Source: Sphingomonas rosea
GTDB taxonomy: Bacteria; Pseudomonadota; Alphaproteobacteria; Sphingomonadales; Sphingomonadaceae
Direction: 5' to 3'
Length of the DNA stretch: 64,000 bases
NCBI RefSeq assembly: GCF_039538065.1
Contig: NZ_BAABBR010000001.1
Location: 62,001 to 126,000, forward strand
Shown: piece by piece, positions 30,500 through 39,009 of the stretch
Numbering within the stretch: the first letter of the stretch is position 1
Layout of the letters: each line of letters opens with the position of its first letter
The notes under the pieces: model-generated
Told to the model about the DNA's origin: nothing
Databases searched by the model: none
What the model saw: the letters and a program-made list of their open reading frames with translations, nothing else
Translations under genes and position numbers: made by a program

Positions 30500-30519
30500 C
30501 CGCGGTCCATTGACCCCTA

Positions 30520-30555
30520 GCTACAATTGTAGCATCACCACGTTACAAATGTAGC
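30520..30555 (+). promoter_or_regulatory. Two BlaI/MecI-type operators upstream of the regulator gene
   Basis: A perfect palindrome GCTACAATTGTAGC (30520-30533) and a near copy GTTACAAATGTAGC (30542-30555) carry the TACA-N2-TGTA core recognised by BlaI, MecI and CopY repressors. Their centres are 22 bases apart, about two helical turns, suiting side-by-side dimers. A TTGACC at 30510-30515 is a possible -35 box; the second site ends 16 bases before the GTG. Autorepression of the following operon is the expected outcome. Confidence 0.8.
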
Positions 30556-30571
30556 ACATGGGAGCCCTTTC

Positions 30572-30949
30572 GTGCTCAATCGCCTGCCGCCCAAGGAACG
30601 CCAGATCGTCGACATCCTCTACCAGCAGGGTGCGATGACGGCCGCCGACGTGACCGAAGCTTTGCCCAGCCAGGTCAGCGGCTCGGCGGTCCGGACGATG
30701 CTCAAGCGGCTCGAGGACAAGGGCTTCGTCACCCGCGCCGACAGCGACCGCGGCTTCCTCTACAGCCCGACCGTGCGCGAGGAGACCGCACGCAAGTCGG
30801 CACTGAGCGAAGTCGTCCGGGTCTTCTTCAACGGCTCGCCGACCAGCGCCGCCAGTGCCCTCCTCGGCATGTCCGACCGGATCGACACCAACGAGCTCGA
30901 CGCGCTCGAGAAGATGATCGCGGAAGCCCGCAAGGCGAAGGGGAACTGA
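30572..30949 (+). CDS. BlaI/MecI/CopY family transcriptional repressor
   Basis: 125 aa, GTG start preceded by GGGAG. The winged helix (about 1-80) has LPPKERQIVDILYQQGAMTAADVTEAL, of which LPPKERQIVD and GSAVRTMLKRLEDKGF are the family signatures, then the wing VTRADSDRGFLYSP. The C-terminal helices (SEVVRVFFNGSP) serve dimerisation and carry the region cut in BlaI upon induction. It is expected to bind the two operators upstream. It is followed after one base by the M56 peptidase gene, the usual BlaI-BlaR pairing. Confidence 0.93.
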   Translation: MLNRLPPKERQIVDILYQQGAMTAADVTEALPSQVSGSAVRTMLKRLEDKGFVTRADSDRGFLYSPTVREETARKSALSEVVRVFFNGSPTSAASALLGMSDRIDTNELDALEKMIAEARKAKGN

Positions 30950-30950
30950 C

Positions 30951-32738
30951 ATGGAACAGCTGATCGCCTTTGCGCTGAAATCGCTGCTGATCGCCGGAGT
31001 GACGCTCGGCCTCCTCCACCTTCTTCGCCACCGCTCCGCCTCCGAACGCTCCATGGTGGCCCATTTCGGCCTGCTGGCGCTGCTGCTGCTGCCGATCGGC
31101 TCGATGTTCCTGCCGCAACTCGTCGTCCACCAGACGTTCACGGCGCCGGCCGCCGGGACCGTCACCGCTCCCACGATCGCCGAGACCGCGGCGGTGATGG
31201 CGACGTCGCCCGCGCCGCTCACCCCGGCGGAAAGCTTCGCGCTCACCGACCTGTGGCCGCTCGCCTACGGCCTGCCGGTCGCGGTCCTGCTCGCGATCAC
31301 CTTCCTTGCGGTCTTGCGCCTGCTGACCCTCCGCGCCCGCTCGTCGGTGCTGCTCGAGCCCACCTGGCTCACCGCGCTGGCCCAGGCGCAGCACCGGATG
31401 GACTTCAAGCACGGCACCGCGCTGCTCACCAGCAAGGACCTCAAGTCGCCGATCAGCTGGGGTGTCATGAGCCCGGTCATCCTCCTCAACGAGGAAGCGC
31501 TCGAGGCGAAGGGCGAGGCCGAGGCGATCATCGCCCACGAGCTCGCCCACGTCCGCGGCATGGACTGGGCCAAGCTGCTGCTCGCCCGCGCGGTCAGCGC
31601 CATCCACTGGTTCAATCCGCTCGTCTGGATCCTCGCCCGCGAAGCGCACCAGCTGCGCGAAGAGACCGCCGACGACGCCGTTCTGGCCGCCGACGTCGCC
31701 GGTCCCGATTATGCCCAGCTACTCGTCGGGGTCGCCCGCCACGAATGCCGTGGCCTGTTGATCGGCGCGCATGGGGTCGCCCCCTCGAAAAGCAGCCTGT
31801 CGCGCCGGGTTCGCCGGGTCCTCGACGGCAGCCTTCCCCGCACGCCGGCCGCGCGCGGCTTTGCCGCCGGGATCGCGCTGGGCGTCGTCGGCACCGCCGC
31901 GCCGCTCGCCGCGCTCACCCTGTCACCCGCGCAAGGCACCGCCGCTGACCAGCGCTATGCCGTGAGCGCCCCGGCCCCGCAGCAGTCGCTTCCGGCCGTG
32001 GTCGCCCGTTCGGTGGCCGGCGCCGCCGCGATCACCAGCCAGGCGGTCGCCGCCAACGTCAGCGCCGCCATCACCGGCAAGGCCGCGCCCTCCGCCGACC
32101 TCGAACGCCAACTCAAGACGCAGATCGCGCAGGAATTGGCAGCGGCCGAAGCCCCCGAGCCGCCCGAAGTCGCCTACGGCGGCCCCCTCCCGCCCCGCGC
32201 GCCGCGCACCCCGCGGTCGCCGAAGCAGGCCGAACTCGACCGCGCCGTCGACCAGGCCGTCGCCAATCGCGCGCTCGGCGTCACCGCCCAATATGCCGCC
32301 GAGATCCGCGCCGCGGTGCCGGGCGTCACGATCGCCGACGACGACATGCTGGCGCTCAAGGCTGTCGGGGTCAGCCCGCAATGGCTCGCCGAGATGCGCC
32401 GCGCCGGCTACAGCGTGCGCGACGTCGACGACCTCGCCGGCGCCCGCGCGGTGGGGGTCTCGCCCGCCTATGTCGCCGACCTGGCATCCGCCGGCATCCG
32501 CAACGTCGGGCTCGAGGACCTGACCGCGATGCGCGCCCTCGGAGTCACCGGCGCCTATGTCCGCCAGCTTCGCGCATCGGGACAGACCAACCTCACCCCC
32601 GACCGGATCGTCACGCTCCGCGCCAACGGCTTTGCCGCCGAAGCGCTGCGGTGGGGCCATAAGCCGCCGCGCGCGCCGAAGACGCCCGAACCGCCCGAGG
32701 CACCGGAGCCCGACGAGCCGGACGAGCCCGGCAACTAA
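30951..32738 (+). CDS. BlaR1-like M56 membrane metallopeptidase with C-terminal 29-residue repeats
   Basis: 595 aa. N-terminal helices (about 5-25, 40-58 and 100-125) surround an M56 zinc peptidase domain with AEAIIAHELAHVRGMDW (HExxH near residue 198) and the third-ligand region REETADDAVLAAD. A further helix near 305-325 leads to an exported part. Instead of a penicillin-binding sensor, the exported part has an Ala/Pro linker and about four 29-residue repeats from roughly residue 440, each like RAVGVSPAYVADLASAGI, closing with a Pro/Glu/Asp-rich tail. By analogy, ligand sensing outside would activate the peptidase, which inactivates the repressor. The signal is unknown. The repeats match those of the next gene. 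Confidence 0.88.
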   Translation: MEQLIAFALKSLLIAGVTLGLLHLLRHRSASERSMVAHFGLLALLLLPIGSMFLPQLVVHQTFTAPAAGTVTAPTIAETAAVMATSPAPLTPAESFALTDLWPLAYGLPVAVLLAITFLAVLRLLTLRARSSVLLEPTWLTALAQAQHRMDFKHGTALLTSKDLKSPISWGVMSPVILLNEEALEAKGEAEAIIAHELAHVRGMDWAKLLLARAVSAIHWFNPLVWILAREAHQLREETADDAVLAADVAGPDYAQLLVGVARHECRGLLIGAHGVAPSKSSLSRRVRRVLDGSLPRTPAARGFAAGIALGVVGTAAPLAALTLSPAQGTAADQRYAVSAPAPQQSLPAVVARSVAGAAAITSQAVAANVSAAITGKAAPSADLERQLKTQIAQELAAAEAPEPPEVAYGGPLPPRAPRTPRSPKQAELDRAVDQAVANRALGVTAQYAAEIRAAVPGVTIADDDMLALKAVGVSPQWLAEMRRAGYSVRDVDDLAGARAVGVSPAYVADLASAGIRNVGLEDLTAMRALGVTGAYVRQLRASGQTNLTPDRIVTLRANGFAAEALRWGHKPPRAPKTPEPPEAPEPDEPDEPGN

Positions 32739-32746
32739 CCGCCTCA

Positions 32747-32792
32747 CCCGTTCCGCCTGATGCCTGCCCAACGCTGCGCCGCAGCGAACGGG
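32747..32792 (+). other. Stem-loop between M56 peptidase and repeat-protein genes
   Basis: Outer arms CCCGTTC (32747-32753) and GAACGGG (32786-32792) enclose an inner near-palindrome CGCTGCG-c-CGCAGCG (32772-32786). It lies 9 bases after the M56 gene stop and 42 before the next start. No T-tract follows, so mRNA processing or differential expression within the operon is more likely than termination. Confidence 0.5.
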
Positions 32793-32833
32793 CGAGGTCT
32801 GCCCGCCGCACCTGCTTTCCCGAGGAGTTCGCC

Positions 32834-33778
32834 ATGAACCGTCCGCTTGCCCTGTGTCTGTCCGTCCTGCTTGGCTGCGCCACGCTCAGCACCACCGGTT
32901 TCGCGGCCGAGGTCGGTGCCCTCACCTTCCGCATCGCCGCCGACCAGTCGGGCGCGCCGCGGCTGTCGCTGCGCTCGGCGGGTGACCGCGACCGGATGGA
33001 CGGCGACTTCCGCTGGGCCGAGATCAAGGGCTTCGACCAGGCCCGGCTCCGCGCCACCGCCGGCCAGCCCGTCCGCTTCGCCGTGGTCCGCGAGGCCGGG
33101 CGCATCGACTGCGCCGGCACGTCGCGCGGCGACCATGCCGAGGGCGGCTGCAAGTTCACCGCCGACCCCGCCTTCGCCAACCTGCTCGCCGCGCGCGGCA
33201 TCGAGCGTCCGGACGAGCGCGAGGCCTTCGCGCTGACCATGACCGGCGCCACGCGCGCGCTGGTCAAAGCGCTCGCCGCGGCGCGCTACCCGACCCCGAC
33301 GCTCGACGACCTGATGGGCATGGCCGCGGTCGGTGTCAGCCCGGCCTATATCGGTGACCTCGCCGCGCACGGCTATCGGCCCAAGGACCTCAGCCATCTC
33401 ATCGCCTTCAAGGCGCTCGACGTCACACCCGCCTATGTCGACGAACTGCGTCGCTTCGGCTTCGCGCAGCTGACCGGCGAAGAGATCGTCCAGTTCAAGG
33501 CGCTCGACATCTCGCCCGCCTATGCCCGCTCGCTCCGGAATGCCGGCTATCCCGACATCTCCGCCGAGGACATCGTCCAGCTGCGCGCGCTCGGTGTCAC
33601 CGCCGACTACATCCGCTCGATGCAGCCGGCCGGCTTGCCGCGCCTCAGCATCGACCAGCTGGTCCAGTGCAAGGCGCTCGGCGTGACTCCGGGTGAGCTT
33701 CGCGCTGCGCAGGGCAAGCGCCTCAGCTGGTCGTCCGACGACCTCGTGGCGATGAAGGTCGCCGGCCTTCTTCCCTGA
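32834..33778 (+). CDS. Secreted protein with five 29-residue repeats shared with the M56 sensor
   Basis: 314 aa. A Sec signal peptide ends near residue 24 (STTGFAAEV). An N-terminal domain (about 25-150) with two cysteines (IDCAGTS and GGCKFTAD) is followed by tandem repeats from about residue 165: AAVGVSPAYIGDLAAHGY, KALDVTPAYVDELRRFGF, KALDISPAYARSLRNAGY, RALGVTADYIRSMQPAGL and KALGVTPGELRAAQG, each with a D-(L/I)-V-x-(F/L) end. The period is 29 residues (87 bases). Each unit should form two helices, so the whole may be a small solenoid. I know of no function. The position suggests a soluble partner or ligand of the M56 sensor. Confidence 0.85.
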   Translation: MNRPLALCLSVLLGCATLSTTGFAAEVGALTFRIAADQSGAPRLSLRSAGDRDRMDGDFRWAEIKGFDQARLRATAGQPVRFAVVREAGRIDCAGTSRGDHAEGGCKFTADPAFANLLAARGIERPDEREAFALTMTGATRALVKALAAARYPTPTLDDLMGMAAVGVSPAYIGDLAAHGYRPKDLSHLIAFKALDVTPAYVDELRRFGFAQLTGEEIVQFKALDISPAYARSLRNAGYPDISAEDIVQLRALGVTADYIRSMQPAGLPRLSIDQLVQCKALGVTPGELRAAQGKRLSWSSDDLVAMKVAGLLP

Positions 33779-33816
33779 TGTCCCTTTCCCCCAGACACCC
33801 CTCCGGAGTGCCCTTC

Positions 33817-35877
33817 ATGTCGCGTGCCTTGTTCCGTTCCGCACTCCTTGCCGGGGCGATCCTTACCCCGACGCTCGCCCGCGCGGTCCCGCCGTCCGCG
33901 ACCGACACGGGCGCGATCGTCTACACGCCGGCCGATTTCGCCCGCTTCGCCCCGCGTACCGCGCTCGACATGCTCAATCAGCTTCCGGGCTTCACCATCC
34001 GCAGCGAGGATGGCGGCCGCGGGCTCGGCCAGGCGACCGAGAACGTCCTCATCAACGGCCAGCGCGTCGCCAACAAGTCGGGCGGCGCGATCGACGAACT
34101 CCAGCGCACCAATGCCGCCAGCGTCGAGCGGATCGAGCTGGTCGACGCCGCCCGCCTCGGGATCGCGGGCCTCTCGGGCCAGGTCGCCAATGTCGTCCTC
34201 AAAGCCGAGAAGAAGGGCCAGGGCCAGTTCGAATGGAAGCCGCAGATCCGCGCGCATTACGCCTATCCGCGGATCATCAACGGCTCGGCGAGCTGGTCCG
34301 ACAAGGCCGGACCCTTCGACTACAAGCTGTCGGTGCAGACGCAGGGCGGGCGCGGCGCCTTCGGCGGGCCGATCACGATCACCGACGGTGCCGGCAACGT
34401 CATCGAGCGCCGCAGCGAACGCTTCCGGGCGCTGTCCGAGCTCCCCCGCTTCGCCGCCACCACCAAGATCGATGGCTGGGGGTCGTCCGAGGGCAACGTC
34501 ACCCTCGCCTACACGCCCTACTGGACCCATTCCGACATCACCGACCGCCGGGTCCGTGCCGACGGCGACAATCGCACCCGCTTCACCAAGCAGCGGCAGA
34601 GCAACGGCAGCGTGTTCGACGCCAATGCCGATTACAGCTTCGCGCTCGGGCCGGGCCGCCTCAAGGTGATCGGAGTTCACAAGTTCGACCACGAACCCAC
34701 CGACACCGTCCAGACCACGCGCTTCGACAGCGGCCGACCCGACGAGGGCGTGCGCTTCTTTCGCCTCGCCCGCATTTCCGAGACGATCGGCCGCGCCGAA
34801 TATGACTGGAAGATCGGCCGCAACAGTTTCCAGCTCTCGCTCGAGCGCGCCGACAACCGGCTCGACCAGCGTGGCCGCCTGTCGCTGCTCGACCCCGCCG
34901 GCAACTTCGTCGAGCAGGAGTTTCCCGGCGGCTCGGGGATCGTCCAGGAGCGCCGCTACGAATCGCTCCTGACCTTCAGCCGCGCGCTCTCGCCCAAGCT
35001 CGACGTTCAGCTCGTCGGCGGCGGCGAGATCTCGAAGCTCAAGCGGGTCGACGGCAACCTCCCCGCCCGCAAATTCTTCCGCCCCAAGGGCAGCCTGACG
35101 CTGGGCTGGCGGCCGAGCGCGCCGTGGGATGTCAGCCTCAAATTCAATCGCAAGGTCGGCCAGATCAGCTTCTACGACTTCCTCTCGCAGCCGCGGCTCG
35201 CCGAGGACCGCCAGAACAGCGGCAACCCCGACCTCGTGCCCCCGCAGAGCTGGGAAGCCGAGCTCGAAGTGGGCCGCAAGCTCGGGCCATGGGGCCAGAC
35301 GCGGCTTCGTGCCTTCCGTCACTGGATCACCGACATCATCGACATCATTCCGATCGGCGAGGATGGCGACGGCGTCGGCAACCTCCCGCGCGCGAGCGAG
35401 ACCGGGTTCGAATGGACCAGCACCTTCACCCTCGACCCGATGGGCTTCAAGGGCGCCAAGCTCGACACCGGCCTGTTCGTCCAGCGCACCCGCGTGCGCG
35501 ATCCGCTGACCGGCGACCTCCGACCGATCAGCGGCAGCCAGAAGCTCGGGATCAACGTCGGGTTGCGCCACGACATCCCGGGCAGCAAATGGGCCTGGGG
35601 GGTCAGCGCCAACCATAATGTCAGCGCCAGGGACTATTATCTCAACGAGATCGGCCACGGCTGGGAAGGCCCGTGGTTCGACGAATGGTTCGTCGAAAAC
35701 AAGGACGTCGCCGGGCTCAAGGTCCGCGCAACCGTCGTGAACCTCTCCAACGCGCGGCATCGCAACGACCGGCTCGTCTACGCCGGGCGGCGCAACGTCT
35801 CGCCGCTGCTCTTCCGGCAGCAGAACAACCAGCTCATCGGACCGATCTTCATGCTCTCGGTCCAGGGAAGCTTCTAA
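33817..35877 (+). CDS. TonB-dependent outer-membrane receptor
   Basis: 686 aa. A signal peptide (MSRALFRSALLAGAILTPT, cleavage near ARA) is followed by a plug domain with ALDMLNQLPGFTIRSE, NVLINGQRVANKSG and ASVERIELVDAARLG, then a 22-strand-type barrel that ends in a terminal Phe (MLSVQGSF), as outer-membrane proteins do. GGAG nine bases upstream supports ATG 33817. There is no N-terminal signalling (secretin-like) domain. It is 38 bases behind the repeat-protein gene, so it should be under BlaI/M56 control. The transported ligand cannot be told. Its stop overlaps that of the convergent DUF2141 gene. Confidence 0.88.
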   Translation: MSRALFRSALLAGAILTPTLARAVPPSATDTGAIVYTPADFARFAPRTALDMLNQLPGFTIRSEDGGRGLGQATENVLINGQRVANKSGGAIDELQRTNAASVERIELVDAARLGIAGLSGQVANVVLKAEKKGQGQFEWKPQIRAHYAYPRIINGSASWSDKAGPFDYKLSVQTQGGRGAFGGPITITDGAGNVIERRSERFRALSELPRFAATTKIDGWGSSEGNVTLAYTPYWTHSDITDRRVRADGDNRTRFTKQRQSNGSVFDANADYSFALGPGRLKVIGVHKFDHEPTDTVQTTRFDSGRPDEGVRFFRLARISETIGRAEYDWKIGRNSFQLSLERADNRLDQRGRLSLLDPAGNFVEQEFPGGSGIVQERRYESLLTFSRALSPKLDVQLVGGGEISKLKRVDGNLPARKFFRPKGSLTLGWRPSAPWDVSLKFNRKVGQISFYDFLSQPRLAEDRQNSGNPDLVPPQSWEAELEVGRKLGPWGQTRLRAFRHWITDIIDIIPIGEDGDGVGNLPRASETGFEWTSTFTLDPMGFKGAKLDTGLFVQRTRVRDPLTGDLRPISGSQKLGINVGLRHDIPGSKWAWGVSANHNVSARDYYLNEIGHGWEGPWFDEWFVENKDVAGLKVRATVVNLSNARHRNDRLVYAGRRNVSPLLFRQQNNQLIGPIFMLSVQGSF

Positions 35878-36317
35878 AGGACGTAGCGGACCCGGATCCG
35901 CTGCACCGAGGCCGTGGCCGGCACGGTGAAGCGGATCTCGTCCCACTTCGGTGCTCGTGGCCGCAGCGCGGGATTGTTCGAAAAGCCGAAGCCCTCGCGC
36001 GGGATGCCGAGGGTCATGTCGAGCTTCCCGTTGTTGTTCTCGTCATGGACGACGAGCAGCGCATAGGTGCCGGGCTTGACCGCGCCGAGGTCGAACCGGC
36101 CCGCCTGGCCTGCGGGGACTGTCCGCCACAGCGCGCCCTTGTCGCCCTTGCAGTCGAGGTAGCGCGAAGGATCGCCCGACAGGCACAGGTGCACCACGCC
36201 CTTGGCCGAGCGGATCCCGGTCAGTTCCACCCGCAGATCGTTCCCGGCCGGCGCCGCGGCGGCAGGCATGGCGACGACGAGCGCAAGCGCGCCCAACAAC
36301 TTCGAAATTCGGCTCAT
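35874..36317 (-). CDS. DUF2141 periplasmic protein
   Basis: 147 aa. A signal peptide ends near AAAAP; the core has DLRVELTGIRSAKGVVHLCL, a stretch with KPGTYALLVVHDENNNGKLDMT and GIPREGFGFSNNP, the clear DUF2141 pattern (a beta-sandwich with an EF-like DENNNGKLD loop). Function unknown. The ATG at 36317 fits the signal peptide. Its stop overlaps the TonB receptor stop (CTAA), so the two messages collide at their 3' ends. It is divergent from crtY (92 bases between starts). Confidence 0.85.
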   Translation of the reverse strand: MSRISKLLGALALVVAMPAAAAPAGNDLRVELTGIRSAKGVVHLCLSGDPSRYLDCKGDKGALWRTVPAGQAGRFDLGAVKPGTYALLVVHDENNNGKLDMTLGIPREGFGFSNNPALRPRAPKWDEIRFTVPATASVQRIRVRYVL

Positions 36318-36409
36318 TTGCGCCCTTTGCCCCCAAGCTCCCTGCTCCAAGCTTAACGGACCACGGGCGGGGTCGCCAGCGTGGCCTCGTCCCGCTACAG
36401 CCTGACGCG

Positions 36410-37549
36410 ATGCGGCGGGCTGACCTGGTGATCGTGGGAGGAGGGTTGGCCGGCGGCCTGTGCGCCCTTGCCGTGCGCCACCGCCGCCCCGACCTCCGCC
36501 TCCTTCTGATCGAGCCGGGCGAAACGATCGGCGGCAACCACCTCTGGTCCTTCTTCAAGGGCGATGTCGCGTCCGCCGACCGATGGCTGACCGATCCGCT
36601 GATCGGGCACCGCTGGACGGGCTACGAAGTCCGCTTTCCCGCGCACCGCCGCGACCTTCCCGACGTCTACCAGACCATCGAAAGCGAGGCGCTCGACCAA
36701 GCTGTCCGCGCCGCGCTCGGCCCCGATGAGATCCTCCGCGGTGAGGCCCGCGCGCTCACCCCCACGGGCGTCACGCTGGAGGACGGCGAGACGGTGCAGG
36801 CCGGCGCGGTGCTCGATGCGCGCGGCGGCAAGGCCGAAGGACTCGACCTCGGCTGGCAGAAATTCCTCGGCCAGCTCCTGTCCATTCCCCAGGGCCATGG
36901 CCTCACGCGCCCGATCGTCATGGACGCGACCGTCGACCAGCATGACGGCTATCGCTTCGTCTACTGCCTGCCCTTCTCAGCCACCGAGCTGTTCGTTGAG
37001 GACACCTATTACAGCGACACGCCCGCCATCGATCCCGACCTGCTGCGCGACCGGATCGGCGACTATGCCGCTTCGCAGGGCTGGCAGATCGCGGCGCGAA
37101 AGCGCGAGGAACATGGCTCGCTCCCCGTCGTCACCGGCGGCGATTTCGACAGGCTCTGGCCGTCATCCGACCCCGTCGCCAGGGCCGGCGCGCGCGGCGG
37201 CTTCTTCCACCCGCTGACCAGCTATTCGCTCCCCGATGCGGTCCGCTTCGCCGTCTGGCTCGCCGACAGGGCCCCGCTGGACGCCGGGCTCGGTGTCGCC
37301 ACCCGGGCGCGCGGCAAGCGCCACTGGAAGAGCGGCGCCTTCTACCGCCTTTTGACCGCCCTCCTCTTCCATGCGGCAGAGCCCGGCGCCAGATACAAGG
37401 TTCTGGAGCGCTTCTACCGCCTTTCCGGCCCCTTGATCGGGCGCTTCTACGCTGGCGAAAGCAATGGCTTCGACAAGGCGCGTGTCCTCGCGGGCAAGCC
37501 GCCTGTGCCCTTCTTCCGGGCGCTCAAGGTTCTGAAGGATAGTTTGTGA
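36410..37549 (+). CDS. crtY: Lycopene beta-cyclase
   Basis: 379 aa. The N-terminal dinucleotide-binding motif is DLVIVGGGLAGGLCAL, followed by IEPGETIGGNHLWSFF, a hallmark of bacterial CrtY. Later motifs are FVYCLPFSATELFVEDTYYSD and EEHGSLPVVTGG. It forms the beta-ionone rings of beta-carotene from lycopene at the membrane. It is the first gene of crtY-crtI-crtB; the stop overlaps the crtI GTG (GTGA). Confidence 0.94.
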   Translation: MRRADLVIVGGGLAGGLCALAVRHRRPDLRLLLIEPGETIGGNHLWSFFKGDVASADRWLTDPLIGHRWTGYEVRFPAHRRDLPDVYQTIESEALDQAVRAALGPDEILRGEARALTPTGVTLEDGETVQAGAVLDARGGKAEGLDLGWQKFLGQLLSIPQGHGLTRPIVMDATVDQHDGYRFVYCLPFSATELFVEDTYYSDTPAIDPDLLRDRIGDYAASQGWQIAARKREEHGSLPVVTGGDFDRLWPSSDPVARAGARGGFFHPLTSYSLPDAVRFAVWLADRAPLDAGLGVATRARGKRHWKSGAFYRLLTALLFHAAEPGARYKVLERFYRLSGPLIGRFYAGESNGFDKARVLAGKPPVPFFRALKVLKDSL

Positions 37550-39009
37550 AGACTGCAATCGTCATCGGTGCCGGTTTCGGCGGCCTCGCCCTCGCCATTC
37601 GTCTCCAGTCGGCGGGGGTGCAGACCACGATTGTCGAGGCACGCGATCGGCCCGGCGGCCGTGCCTATGTCTGGGAGAAGGACGGCCACGTGTTCGACGC
37701 GGGGCCGACGGTCATCACCGATCCCGACTGCCTCGAGCGGCTGTGGAAGCTGTCGGGCCACGACATTGCCGAGGATGTCGAACTCGTGCCGGTCAAGCCC
37801 TTCTACCGGCTCTCCTGGCCCGACGGGACGGTGTTCGACTACACCAATGACGACGCCCAATTGAAGGCGTCGATGGATGCGATGAGCCCCGGCGACTGGG
37901 CCGGCTATCAGCGCTTCCTCGCCTACAGCAAGGGCGTGTTCGAGGAAGGCTATGTCAAGCTCGGCACCAAGGCCTTCGAGAGCCTTGGCGACATGCTCAA
38001 GGCCGCGCCCGCGCTCGCCAAATATCAGGCCTGGCGGTCGGTCTATTCGATCGTGTCGAGCTACGTGAAGGACGAGCACCTCCGACAGGCGCTGTCGTTC
38101 CATACGCTGCTGGTCGGCGGCAATCCGATGACCACCTCGTCGATCTACGCGCTGATCCACAAGCTCGAGCGCGACGGCGGCGTGTGGTTCGCCAAGGGCG
38201 GCACCAACAAGCTGATCGCCGGCATGGTTCGTCAGTTCAAGCGGATCGGCGGCACCATCCGCCTCGGCGATCCGGTGACCGCGATTCTGGCCGAGAACGA
38301 CCGCGTGACCGGCGTCCGCACCGCTTCGGGCTGGAGCGCAACGGCCGACGCGGTCGCCTCCAACGGCGACGTCGTCCACAGCTACGGGCTGATCGAAGGC
38401 TCCGACCGCGGCCAGCAGCAGGTGCGTGCCTTGAAGCGCAAGCGCTTCTCGCCCGGCCTGTTCGTGCTCCACTTCGGGCTCGAGGGCACCTTCGACATCG
38501 CCCACCACACGATCCTGTTCGGGCCGCGCTACGGCGGGCTCGTCAACGACATCTACAAGACCGGCAAGCTCGCGACCGACCCGGCGCTCTACATCCACCA
38601 CCCGACCGTCACCGATCCGTCGATGGCGCCGCCGGGCTGCTCGACCTTCTACGCGCTCGCGCCCGTCCCCAATGCCGCACGCGCCGACGTCGACTGGGCG
38701 GTCGAGGGACCGAAATATCAGGAGGTCATCCTCGATACGATCGCCGAGCGGATGATCCCCGACGTGCGGGAACGCATCCGGACCATCTTCCACTACACCC
38801 CGGCGAACTTCAGCACCGATCTTGCCGCGCATCTCGGCTCGGCCTTCAGCCTCGAGCCCGTGCTGTGGCAGTCGGCCTGGTTCCGCACCCACAATCGCGA
38901 CGACAAGCTGAAGAACCTCTATTTCGTCGGCGCCGGCACCCATCCGGGCGCGGGCATTCCGGGCGTGGTCGGAAGCGCGGAGGCAACCGCGGGACTGATG
39001 CTGGCGTGA
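37546..39009 (+). CDS. crtI: Phytoene desaturase
   Basis: 487 aa, GTG start overlapping crtY. The FAD-binding motif is AIVIGAGFGGLALAIRLQ, followed by RPGGRAYVW and DAGPTVITDP; the C-terminal carotenoid dehydrogenase signature is LYFVGAGTHPGAGIPGV. It converts phytoene stepwise to lycopene at the membrane. GTGA overlaps couple it to crtY upstream and crtB downstream. Confidence 0.96.
   Translation: MKTAIVIGAGFGGLALAIRLQSAGVQTTIVEARDRPGGRAYVWEKDGHVFDAGPTVITDPDCLERLWKLSGHDIAEDVELVPVKPFYRLSWPDGTVFDYTNDDAQLKASMDAMSPGDWAGYQRFLAYSKGVFEEGYVKLGTKAFESLGDMLKAAPALAKYQAWRSVYSIVSSYVKDEHLRQALSFHTLLVGGNPMTTSSIYALIHKLERDGGVWFAKGGTNKLIAGMVRQFKRIGGTIRLGDPVTAILAENDRVTGVRTASGWSATADAVASNGDVVHSYGLIEGSDRGQQQVRALKRKRFSPGLFVLHFGLEGTFDIAHHTILFGPRYGGLVNDIYKTGKLATDPALYIHHPTVTDPSMAPPGCSTFYALAPVPNAARADVDWAVEGPKYQEVILDTIAERMIPDVRERIRTIFHYTPANFSTDLAAHLGSAFSLEPVLWQSAWFRTHNRDDKLKNLYFVGAGTHPGAGIPGVVGSAEATAGLMLA

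What the first reader, a model, noticed from the sequence alone, without database searches (positions are those of the whole stretch)
30520..35877. BlaI-M56-repeat protein-TonB receptor operon: a possible undescribed sensing and uptake system
Seen: a BlaI-type repressor, a BlaR1-like M56 peptidase without a penicillin-binding sensor, a secreted repeat protein and a TonB-dependent receptor in one run with gaps of 1, 95 and 38 bases, behind two BlaI operators. Known: in bla/mec systems a membrane M56 peptidase responds to ligand and ends repression. Inference: here the ligand is not a beta-lactam, and the regulated output is an outer-membrane uptake receptor.
Basis: partly seen in the sequence, partly recalled or inferred. 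Interest (0 to 1): 0.8.

Follow-up and report, generated by a model that had tools for sequence, protein, structure and literature searches.

The report
BlaI-M56 regulon with outer-membrane receptor
A sphingomonad operon appears to use the same repressor-plus-membrane-protease logic that controls penicillin resistance elsewhere, but with a different, repeat-built sensor and with a set of exported proteins, an outer-membrane receptor among them, as its predicted targets.

Summary
In detail: blaI, a BlaR1-like M56 protease gene, a secreted-repeat gene (REP) and a TonB-dependent receptor gene form one run behind two BlaI-type operators.

It is not a chance neighbourhood. In 71 genomes of the window's genus, REP, twin operators and the close receptor orthologue (TBDR-A) occur only with the M56 (37, 36 and 25 of 40 genomes; 0 of 31 others). 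In ten genomes TBDR-A, or in one only its presumed promoter, lies beside dapE instead of in the operon; in the nine where the receptor's start is on the contig it has its own twin operators. Operator scans give 78 site groups: 41 at blaI-M56, 36 at other genes (16 DUF2807/'Toastrack', 9 TBDR-A, 4 of an unnamed family, 3 PF00144 hydrolases, 4 others), 1 at a contig end. In the window's genome the only other site precedes a DUF2807 gene.

The M56 core matches S. aureus BlaR1 but lacks the penicillin-binding sensor; its predicted periplasmic domain is an alpha-solenoid homologous to REP's.

So: BlaI/BlaR1-type control with a new sensor and a regulon of predicted exported proteins. Ligand and transport function are unknown; 'uptake system' is too narrow a reading.

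The parts
30510..30515 (+). -35-like TTGACC; its TTG begins 12 bases before the first operator core
   Evidence: Sequence. In 23 chosen operator promoters a TTG lies exactly 12 bases before the first core in 14, 10 bases in 5, elsewhere in 3, absent in 1. Role inferred.
30520..30533 (+). Operator 1, GCTACAATTGTAGC (core 30522-30531)
30542..30555 (+). Operator 2, GTTACAAATGTAGC (core 30544-30553), 22 bases after operator 1
30572..30949 (+). blaI: BlaI/MecI/CopY-family repressor, 125 aa, GTG start
   Evidence: Pfam Penicillinase_R 1.6e-23; 62-82% identical to 16 relatives.
30951..32738 (+). M56 membrane metalloprotease, 595 aa: hydrophobic helices about 4-22, 41-59, 104-122 and 304-322, HELAH at 196, EETADD at 237, C-terminal alpha-solenoid about 446-569
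32834..33778 (+). REP: export-type N-terminus, small beta domain with Cys93 and Cys106 (invariant in 28 aligned sequences), then alpha-solenoid repeats homologous to the M56 C-terminus
33817..35877 (+). TonB-dependent receptor (TBDR-A); mechanical ORF begins at 33778, homologues favour 33817
   Evidence: Pfam Plug, and barrel just under cut-off; start from alignment; profile match of the N-terminal region to the colicin I receptor, 1e-6.

Best explanation
An extracytoplasmic signalling regulon of the BlaI/BlaR1 type. (1) BlaI sits on twin GCTACAAATGTAGC-type operators in the promoter and represses the operon and a few distant genes (operators shown; binding inferred). (2) The M56 spans the inner membrane, with an HExxH zinc site predicted to face the cytosol and a predicted periplasmic alpha-solenoid in place of BlaR1's penicillin-binding domain. 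(3) An envelope or extracellular signal reaching the solenoid activates the protease, which cleaves BlaI (inferred from BlaR1). (4) Derepression raises blaI, the M56, REP and exported outputs: the TonB receptor where present, DUF2807 proteins and, in some species, hydrolases (inferred). (5) REP, a free exported copy of the sensor's solenoid joined to a beta domain, most likely meets the signal or the M56 solenoid itself as co-sensor or feedback partner (inferred). The ligand is unknown.
Against: No binding, expression or cleavage data. The 71 genomes are related, so the counts are not independent. The detached receptor site is always beside dapE, so few events may underlie it: with G055 rightly labelled, the tree needs 4 label changes, of which well-supported branches force 2 (the first tree, mislabelled G055). 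Receptor relatives at 531-618 bits exist away from any M56 operon and without operators (G068, G028, second copy in G023). TBDR-A is absent from 15 of 40 M56 genomes, REP from 3. Four M56 genomes lack the exact twin pattern: G008 and G069 have one exact and one mismatched site, G066 and G065 one site found. The window's genome has no exact GCTACAAATGTAGC; its own cores are exact but flank or centre differ. REP homologues in Acidobacteria lack detectable blaI or M56 neighbours.
Confidence: 0.72

Rival explanations
1. Substrate-induced uptake: the M56/REP sensor detects the very compound that the receptor imports.
For: Receptor gene directly after REP in 18 of 24 loci; operators kept after separation; a different TBDR family (one member tested: OMP_b-brl_3) takes the same place in several genomes; an acyl-CoA dehydrogenase-family gene follows in 13 of 57 rows, which I had first overlooked and for which I raised this from 0.25.
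Against: Regulon rich in DUF2807, part of the Toastrack group tied to envelope stress (PMC11237479, passages read), and in hydrolases; 15 of 40 M56 genomes lack TBDR-A. The dehydrogenase may be inherited position; it was not found next to the window's operon.
Confidence: 0.28
2. Envelope or antimicrobial stress response: peptidoglycan, membrane or antibiotic damage is sensed, and the exported set, including the receptor, remodels or defends the envelope.
For: DUF2807 at 16 of 78 site groups, PF00144 hydrolases at 3 and after the receptor in 5 Sphingomonas loci, two of which look near-identical; DUF2807 unified with DUF4097 and DUF2154 as Toastrack of PSP/Lia systems (PMC11237479, passages); a lytic transglycosylase gene (c5, one member tested) is divergent from blaI in 15 of 57 rows.
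Against: The transglycosylase and dapE neighbours may be inherited position only; Toastrack is pan-bacterial and proves no stress role; a TonB receptor is an unusual stress output.
Confidence: 0.38
3. A retained beta-lactam response: the M56 reports beta-lactam damage indirectly and the PF00144 proteins are lactamases.
For: BlaI-M56 pair and PF00144 genes under the same operator.
Against: No penicillin-binding sensor; PF00144 at only 3 of 78 site groups, and that family covers many hydrolases that are not lactamases (recalled).
Confidence: 0.1
4. Mere neighbourhood: receptor and REP are fixed beside blaI-M56 by descent, without regulation.
For: Related genomes; one syntenic detached site.
Against: The detached receptor and distant DUF2807, PF00144 and other genes carry the operators; control hits 0 and 2 (also 85).
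Confidence: 0.04

Closest known systems
bla/mec system (BlaI-BlaR1, MecI-MecR1)
   Same: BlaI-family repressor next to a membrane M56 protease with the BlaR1 core fold; palindromic TACA..TGTA-type operators (operator likeness recalled); predicted derepression by cleavage of the repressor (mechanism in PMC7593790, passages read).
   Different: No penicillin-binding sensor; a helical-repeat C-terminal domain instead; predicted outputs are a TonB receptor, a sensor-like secreted protein and DUF2807 proteins.
CopY/TcrY copper repressors
   Same: Same repressor superfamily; best NCBIfam hit of this BlaI (3e-10, 40.5 bits); related operator form (recalled).
   Different: Far under the equivalog cut-off of 121.95 bits; paired here with an M56 protease.
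Fec/Pup-type TonB receptor signalling through anti-sigma factors
   Same: Envelope signal leads to proteolysis and to expression of a TonB receptor (recalled).
   Different: Repressor plus M56 protease in place of an ECF sigma and anti-sigma factor; the window's run holds only the four genes described.
Toastrack proteins (DUF2807/DUF4097/DUF2154) of PSP/Lia systems
   Same: 16 of 78 site groups, one in the window's genome, precede DUF2807 genes.
   Different: Here behind BlaI-type operators; word searches of that paper's main text found no BlaI, BlaR or M56.

Membership tests
BlaI/MecI/CopY repressors | Penicillinase_R winged-helix domain | tested here: met
   Pfam 1.6e-23, 83.7 bits against 22.6.
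BlaI/MecI/CopY repressors | Palindromic operator in its own promoter | tested here: met
   Two sites, 0 in 100 shuffles; sites in 22 of 22 loci with blaI. Sequence only; binding not tested.
BlaR1/MecR1 beta-lactam sensors | M56 zinc protease with HExxH and membrane helices | tested here: met
BlaR1/MecR1 beta-lactam sensors | C-terminal penicillin-binding (class D-like) sensor domain | tested here: not met
   BlaR1 model matches only its positions 4-296 of 585, 62.2 bits against 400; no other Pfam domain than M56 and weak M48; C-terminus modelled as alpha-solenoid.
BlaR1-type signalling | Signal-dependent cleavage of the repressor | not testable with these tools
   Needs biochemistry.
TonB-dependent receptors | Plug domain | tested here: met
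   27.3 bits against 23.9; profile match to Cir.
TonB-dependent receptors | Beta-barrel domain | tested here: inconclusive
   25.3 bits against a cut-off of 27; not modelled.
TonB-dependent receptors | TonB box and energised import of a substrate | not tested
   No TonB-box test was run; import needs experiment.
TAL-effector-like or mTERF-like solenoids (fold of REP) | Shared fold beyond general helical-repeat likeness | tested here: inconclusive

The most novel reading that the evidence does not exclude
M56 sensors of this kind work with free, exported copies of their own sensor domain: REP (and perhaps, in other species, the 'YVIRD/LG-Q' protein, some of whose relatives a source names BlaR1) is made on derepression and competes with, or presents the signal to, the membrane-bound solenoid, closing a periplasmic feedback loop that sets expression of an outer-membrane receptor and a Toastrack protein. 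I know of no such design described for BlaR1 (recalled).
Probability: 0.3. Interest if true: 0.75.

Novelty: new variant of a known kind. Interest (0 to 1): 0.6.

Why it matters
BlaI-M56 gene pairs tend to be read as penicillin resistance. Here one such pair has a sequence-supported regulon of predicted exported proteins with a TonB receptor as a frequent close partner, a sensor repeat for which I found no Pfam model, and compact operators that make the regulon readable from sequence. That makes it directly testable what M56 sensors without a penicillin-binding domain respond to.

Tried and rejected
Ligand guess from neighbours: acyl-CoA dehydrogenase (c9, two members tested), LemA- and DUF2207-type genes, BTAD regulator, GH16 plus SusC-like TBDR plus tryptophan halogenase, lytic transglycosylase (c5), dapE and a GGDEF/EAL gene (c10, one tested) (LemA by eye) differ between genomes or may be inherited position, so I drew no ligand from them.

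Fold of REP: Foldseek's only match at E 0.001 or below was a designed nanocage (by sequence profile too); VIA-align rows (TAL effectors, BurrH, MTERF4) are middling and were not used. AbiEi_4 and MTH865 hits in 3 and 1 of 28 REP members I took as helical-repeat noise. PDB searches with single REP and TBDR sequences gave nothing useful.

Acidobacterial REP homologues (6 loci, 3 of them short or cut near the gene) show no blaI or M56 by phmmer, so REP alone does not mark this system.

Rows dropped before counting: one search lists 41 genomes, the G012 hit (45.5 bits) was left out, 40 counted; one search lists 39, G037 and G043 match only through the M56's own repeats, 37 counted; one search lists 15 genomes, G037 for the same reason leaves 14. 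TBDR-A counts use matches of about 730 bits or more plus partial copies: G032 in two fragments inside the operon, G041, G048, G054 (40 bits) and G055 cut by contig ends. Matches of 327-618 bits were otherwise not counted, among them the four operon copies of G019, G022, G023, G029; the cut is mine. Site groups were assigned by hand. Four of the 16 DUF2807 targets (G029, G037, G040, G067) rest on homology to the own-genome protein, the other 12 on Pfam.

Literature: searches (open-access PMC library) and passages of PMC10470040, PMC12864828, PMC12204202, PMC7190382, PMC12915585, PMC2529317, PMC7593790, PMC11237479. None of what I saw describes a BlaI-M56-TonB receptor unit; other listed papers were seen as listings only, and several 'blai' hits are author names. 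PMC10470040 tables a BlaI gene and an M56 gene of Porphyromonas gingivalis with neighbouring locus tags. No claim is made beyond these searches.

Corrected on checking: the first tree labelled G055 as without operators; one search repeats it with the right label on 29 rows. I had overlooked the recurring c9 gene and raised the uptake rival from 0.25 to 0.28 and lowered the stress rival from 0.40 to 0.38.
Full report
What is there. The four genes and two operators are as described. The genome is held as one contig of 2.68 Mb with a single BlaI and a single M56 match, so the operators elsewhere in it can be ascribed to this pair.

Conserved unit. A scan of named genomes with a REP alignment gave 30 loci: 24 Sphingomonas/Sphingomicrobium and 6 Acidobacteria. 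In the 24, phmmer finds M56 in 23 and blaI in 22 (L018 lacks both and L006 lacks blaI; both begin near a contig end) and a TBDR directly after REP in 18; of the other six, one has a BTAD regulator before two TBDRs, two have GH16 and another TBDR, two no receptor next, and one ends. At least 15 of the 24 are also among the 71 genus genomes used below, judged by equal contig lengths and positions, so the two sets overlap. An order-wide sample of 247 genomes has REP in 14 (15 listed, one through the M56's own repeats), in 2 of 70 genera; in all 8 loci of the second genus M56, REP and TBDR are contiguous, and these loci end before blaI and its promoter. The system is conserved but narrow.

Operators and regulon. 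One or two sites lie upstream of blaI in 22 of 22 named loci with blaI, two in 20. In 71 genomes of the window's genus the twin pattern occurs at 53 places in 36 genomes, the reversed control nowhere; the exact 14-mer adds 25 places, against 2 control hits. Of these 78 site groups, 41 precede blaI-M56 (36 twin, the window included; single in G008, G047, G065, G069 and at a distant second pair in G038), 9 TBDR-A, 16 DUF2807, 4 a family with a YVIRD motif and LG-Q repeats without a Pfam match, 3 PF00144 hydrolases, 2 DUF5694, 1 S15-like hydrolase, 1 amidohydrolase, and 1 is at a contig end beside dapE. The 14 non-receptor outputs examined, and REP and the receptor, have hydrophobic N-termini of the export kind; the other targets were not scored.

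The separated receptor. In ten genomes the receptor site is outside the operon and beside dapE (cluster c11; two members confirmed). In nine the receptor's start is on the contig and twin operators precede it: seven with 378-824 bits of receptor (L073, L083, L090, L094, L104, L106, L116) and two with only its first part (L109 40 bits, L110 118 bits); in the tenth (L098) the contig ends just after the operators. In the seven, the operators end 9-37 bases before the start chosen by the script; the dapE start is 53-139 bases away in the five where it was resolved. With G055 labelled as detached, a 29-row receptor tree needs 4 changes between arrangements, 2 of them forced by well-supported branches, so more than one move is likely, though few. 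In G043 the whole blaI-M56-receptor run lies beside dapE, which suggests how the split arose.

In the window's genome the third site cluster lies 22 bases before a DUF2807 gene, C1:2533802-2534512. Seven of seven orthologues in M56-bearing genomes, its own included, have an exact or one-mismatch core 30-61 bases before the matched region; two more distant ones in genomes without the M56 have only a two-mismatch core at -40 or a one-mismatch core at -157.

Co-occurrence. M56 40 genomes, REP 37, twin operators 36, TBDR-A 25; the last three never without the first (Fisher p 5e-17, 4e-16, 5e-9; relatedness not corrected). Three M56 genomes lack REP (G037, G043, G061); in G061 a DUF2807 gene stands between M56 and two TBDR copies.

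Mechanism. The operators begin 12 (14 of 23) or 10 (5 of 23) bases after the start of a TTG element in the promoters chosen for display, which suits a repressor that blocks polymerase. The step from signal to BlaI cleavage is borrowed from BlaR1 (PMC7593790, passages). What REP does is inference.

Stress or uptake? Exported hydrolases and Toastrack proteins tilt me towards an envelope signal. Against that, a receptor is the usual next gene, and an acyl-CoA dehydrogenase-family gene follows in 13 of 57 rows. Nothing here identifies the ligand, and I keep both open.

Verdict. Real, more than neighbourhood, and a new variant of BlaI/BlaR1-type control; membership in the BlaR1 beta-lactam sensors fails on the missing sensor domain.

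Noticed in passing
own genome C1:2533802-2534512 (locus L036, 753-1466, minus): DUF2807 gene behind a BlaI-type twin operator, outside the window; second unit of the predicted regulon in this genome.
   Followed up: yes
L168 4046-4696, L171 3346-3969, L174 4058-4654, L183 3331-3966: Protein family with export-type N-terminus, YVIRD motif and LG-Q repeats, no Pfam match, behind BlaI-type operators; some relatives are named BlaR1 by a source.
   Followed up: partly
L176 2978-7132: Distant second BlaI-M56 pair (91 and 113 bits) behind the same operator, next to an M13 peptidase gene.
   Followed up: no
L013, L015, L016, L020, L021, downstream of the TBDR: Gene of a beta-lactamase-fold (PF00144) protein overlapping the receptor gene by one base (TPR also found in L013, the one tested); the same cluster is detached behind twin operators in G026 (L081).
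   Followed up: partly
L024-L029: REP homologues in Acidobacteria without blaI or M56 detected nearby; three of the six loci are short or cut near the gene.
   Followed up: partly
L186 3518-4576: REP-like protein (352 aa) outside any blaI operon, next to a permease-like and a TetR-like gene (by eye).
   Followed up: no
L100: In G043 the blaI-M56-receptor run lies beside dapE, the place where the receptor stands alone in other genomes.
   Followed up: no
window 35874-39009: DUF2141 gene facing the receptor gene, then a lycopene cyclase gene and a phytoene-desaturase-like gene (the last by eye).
   Followed up: no
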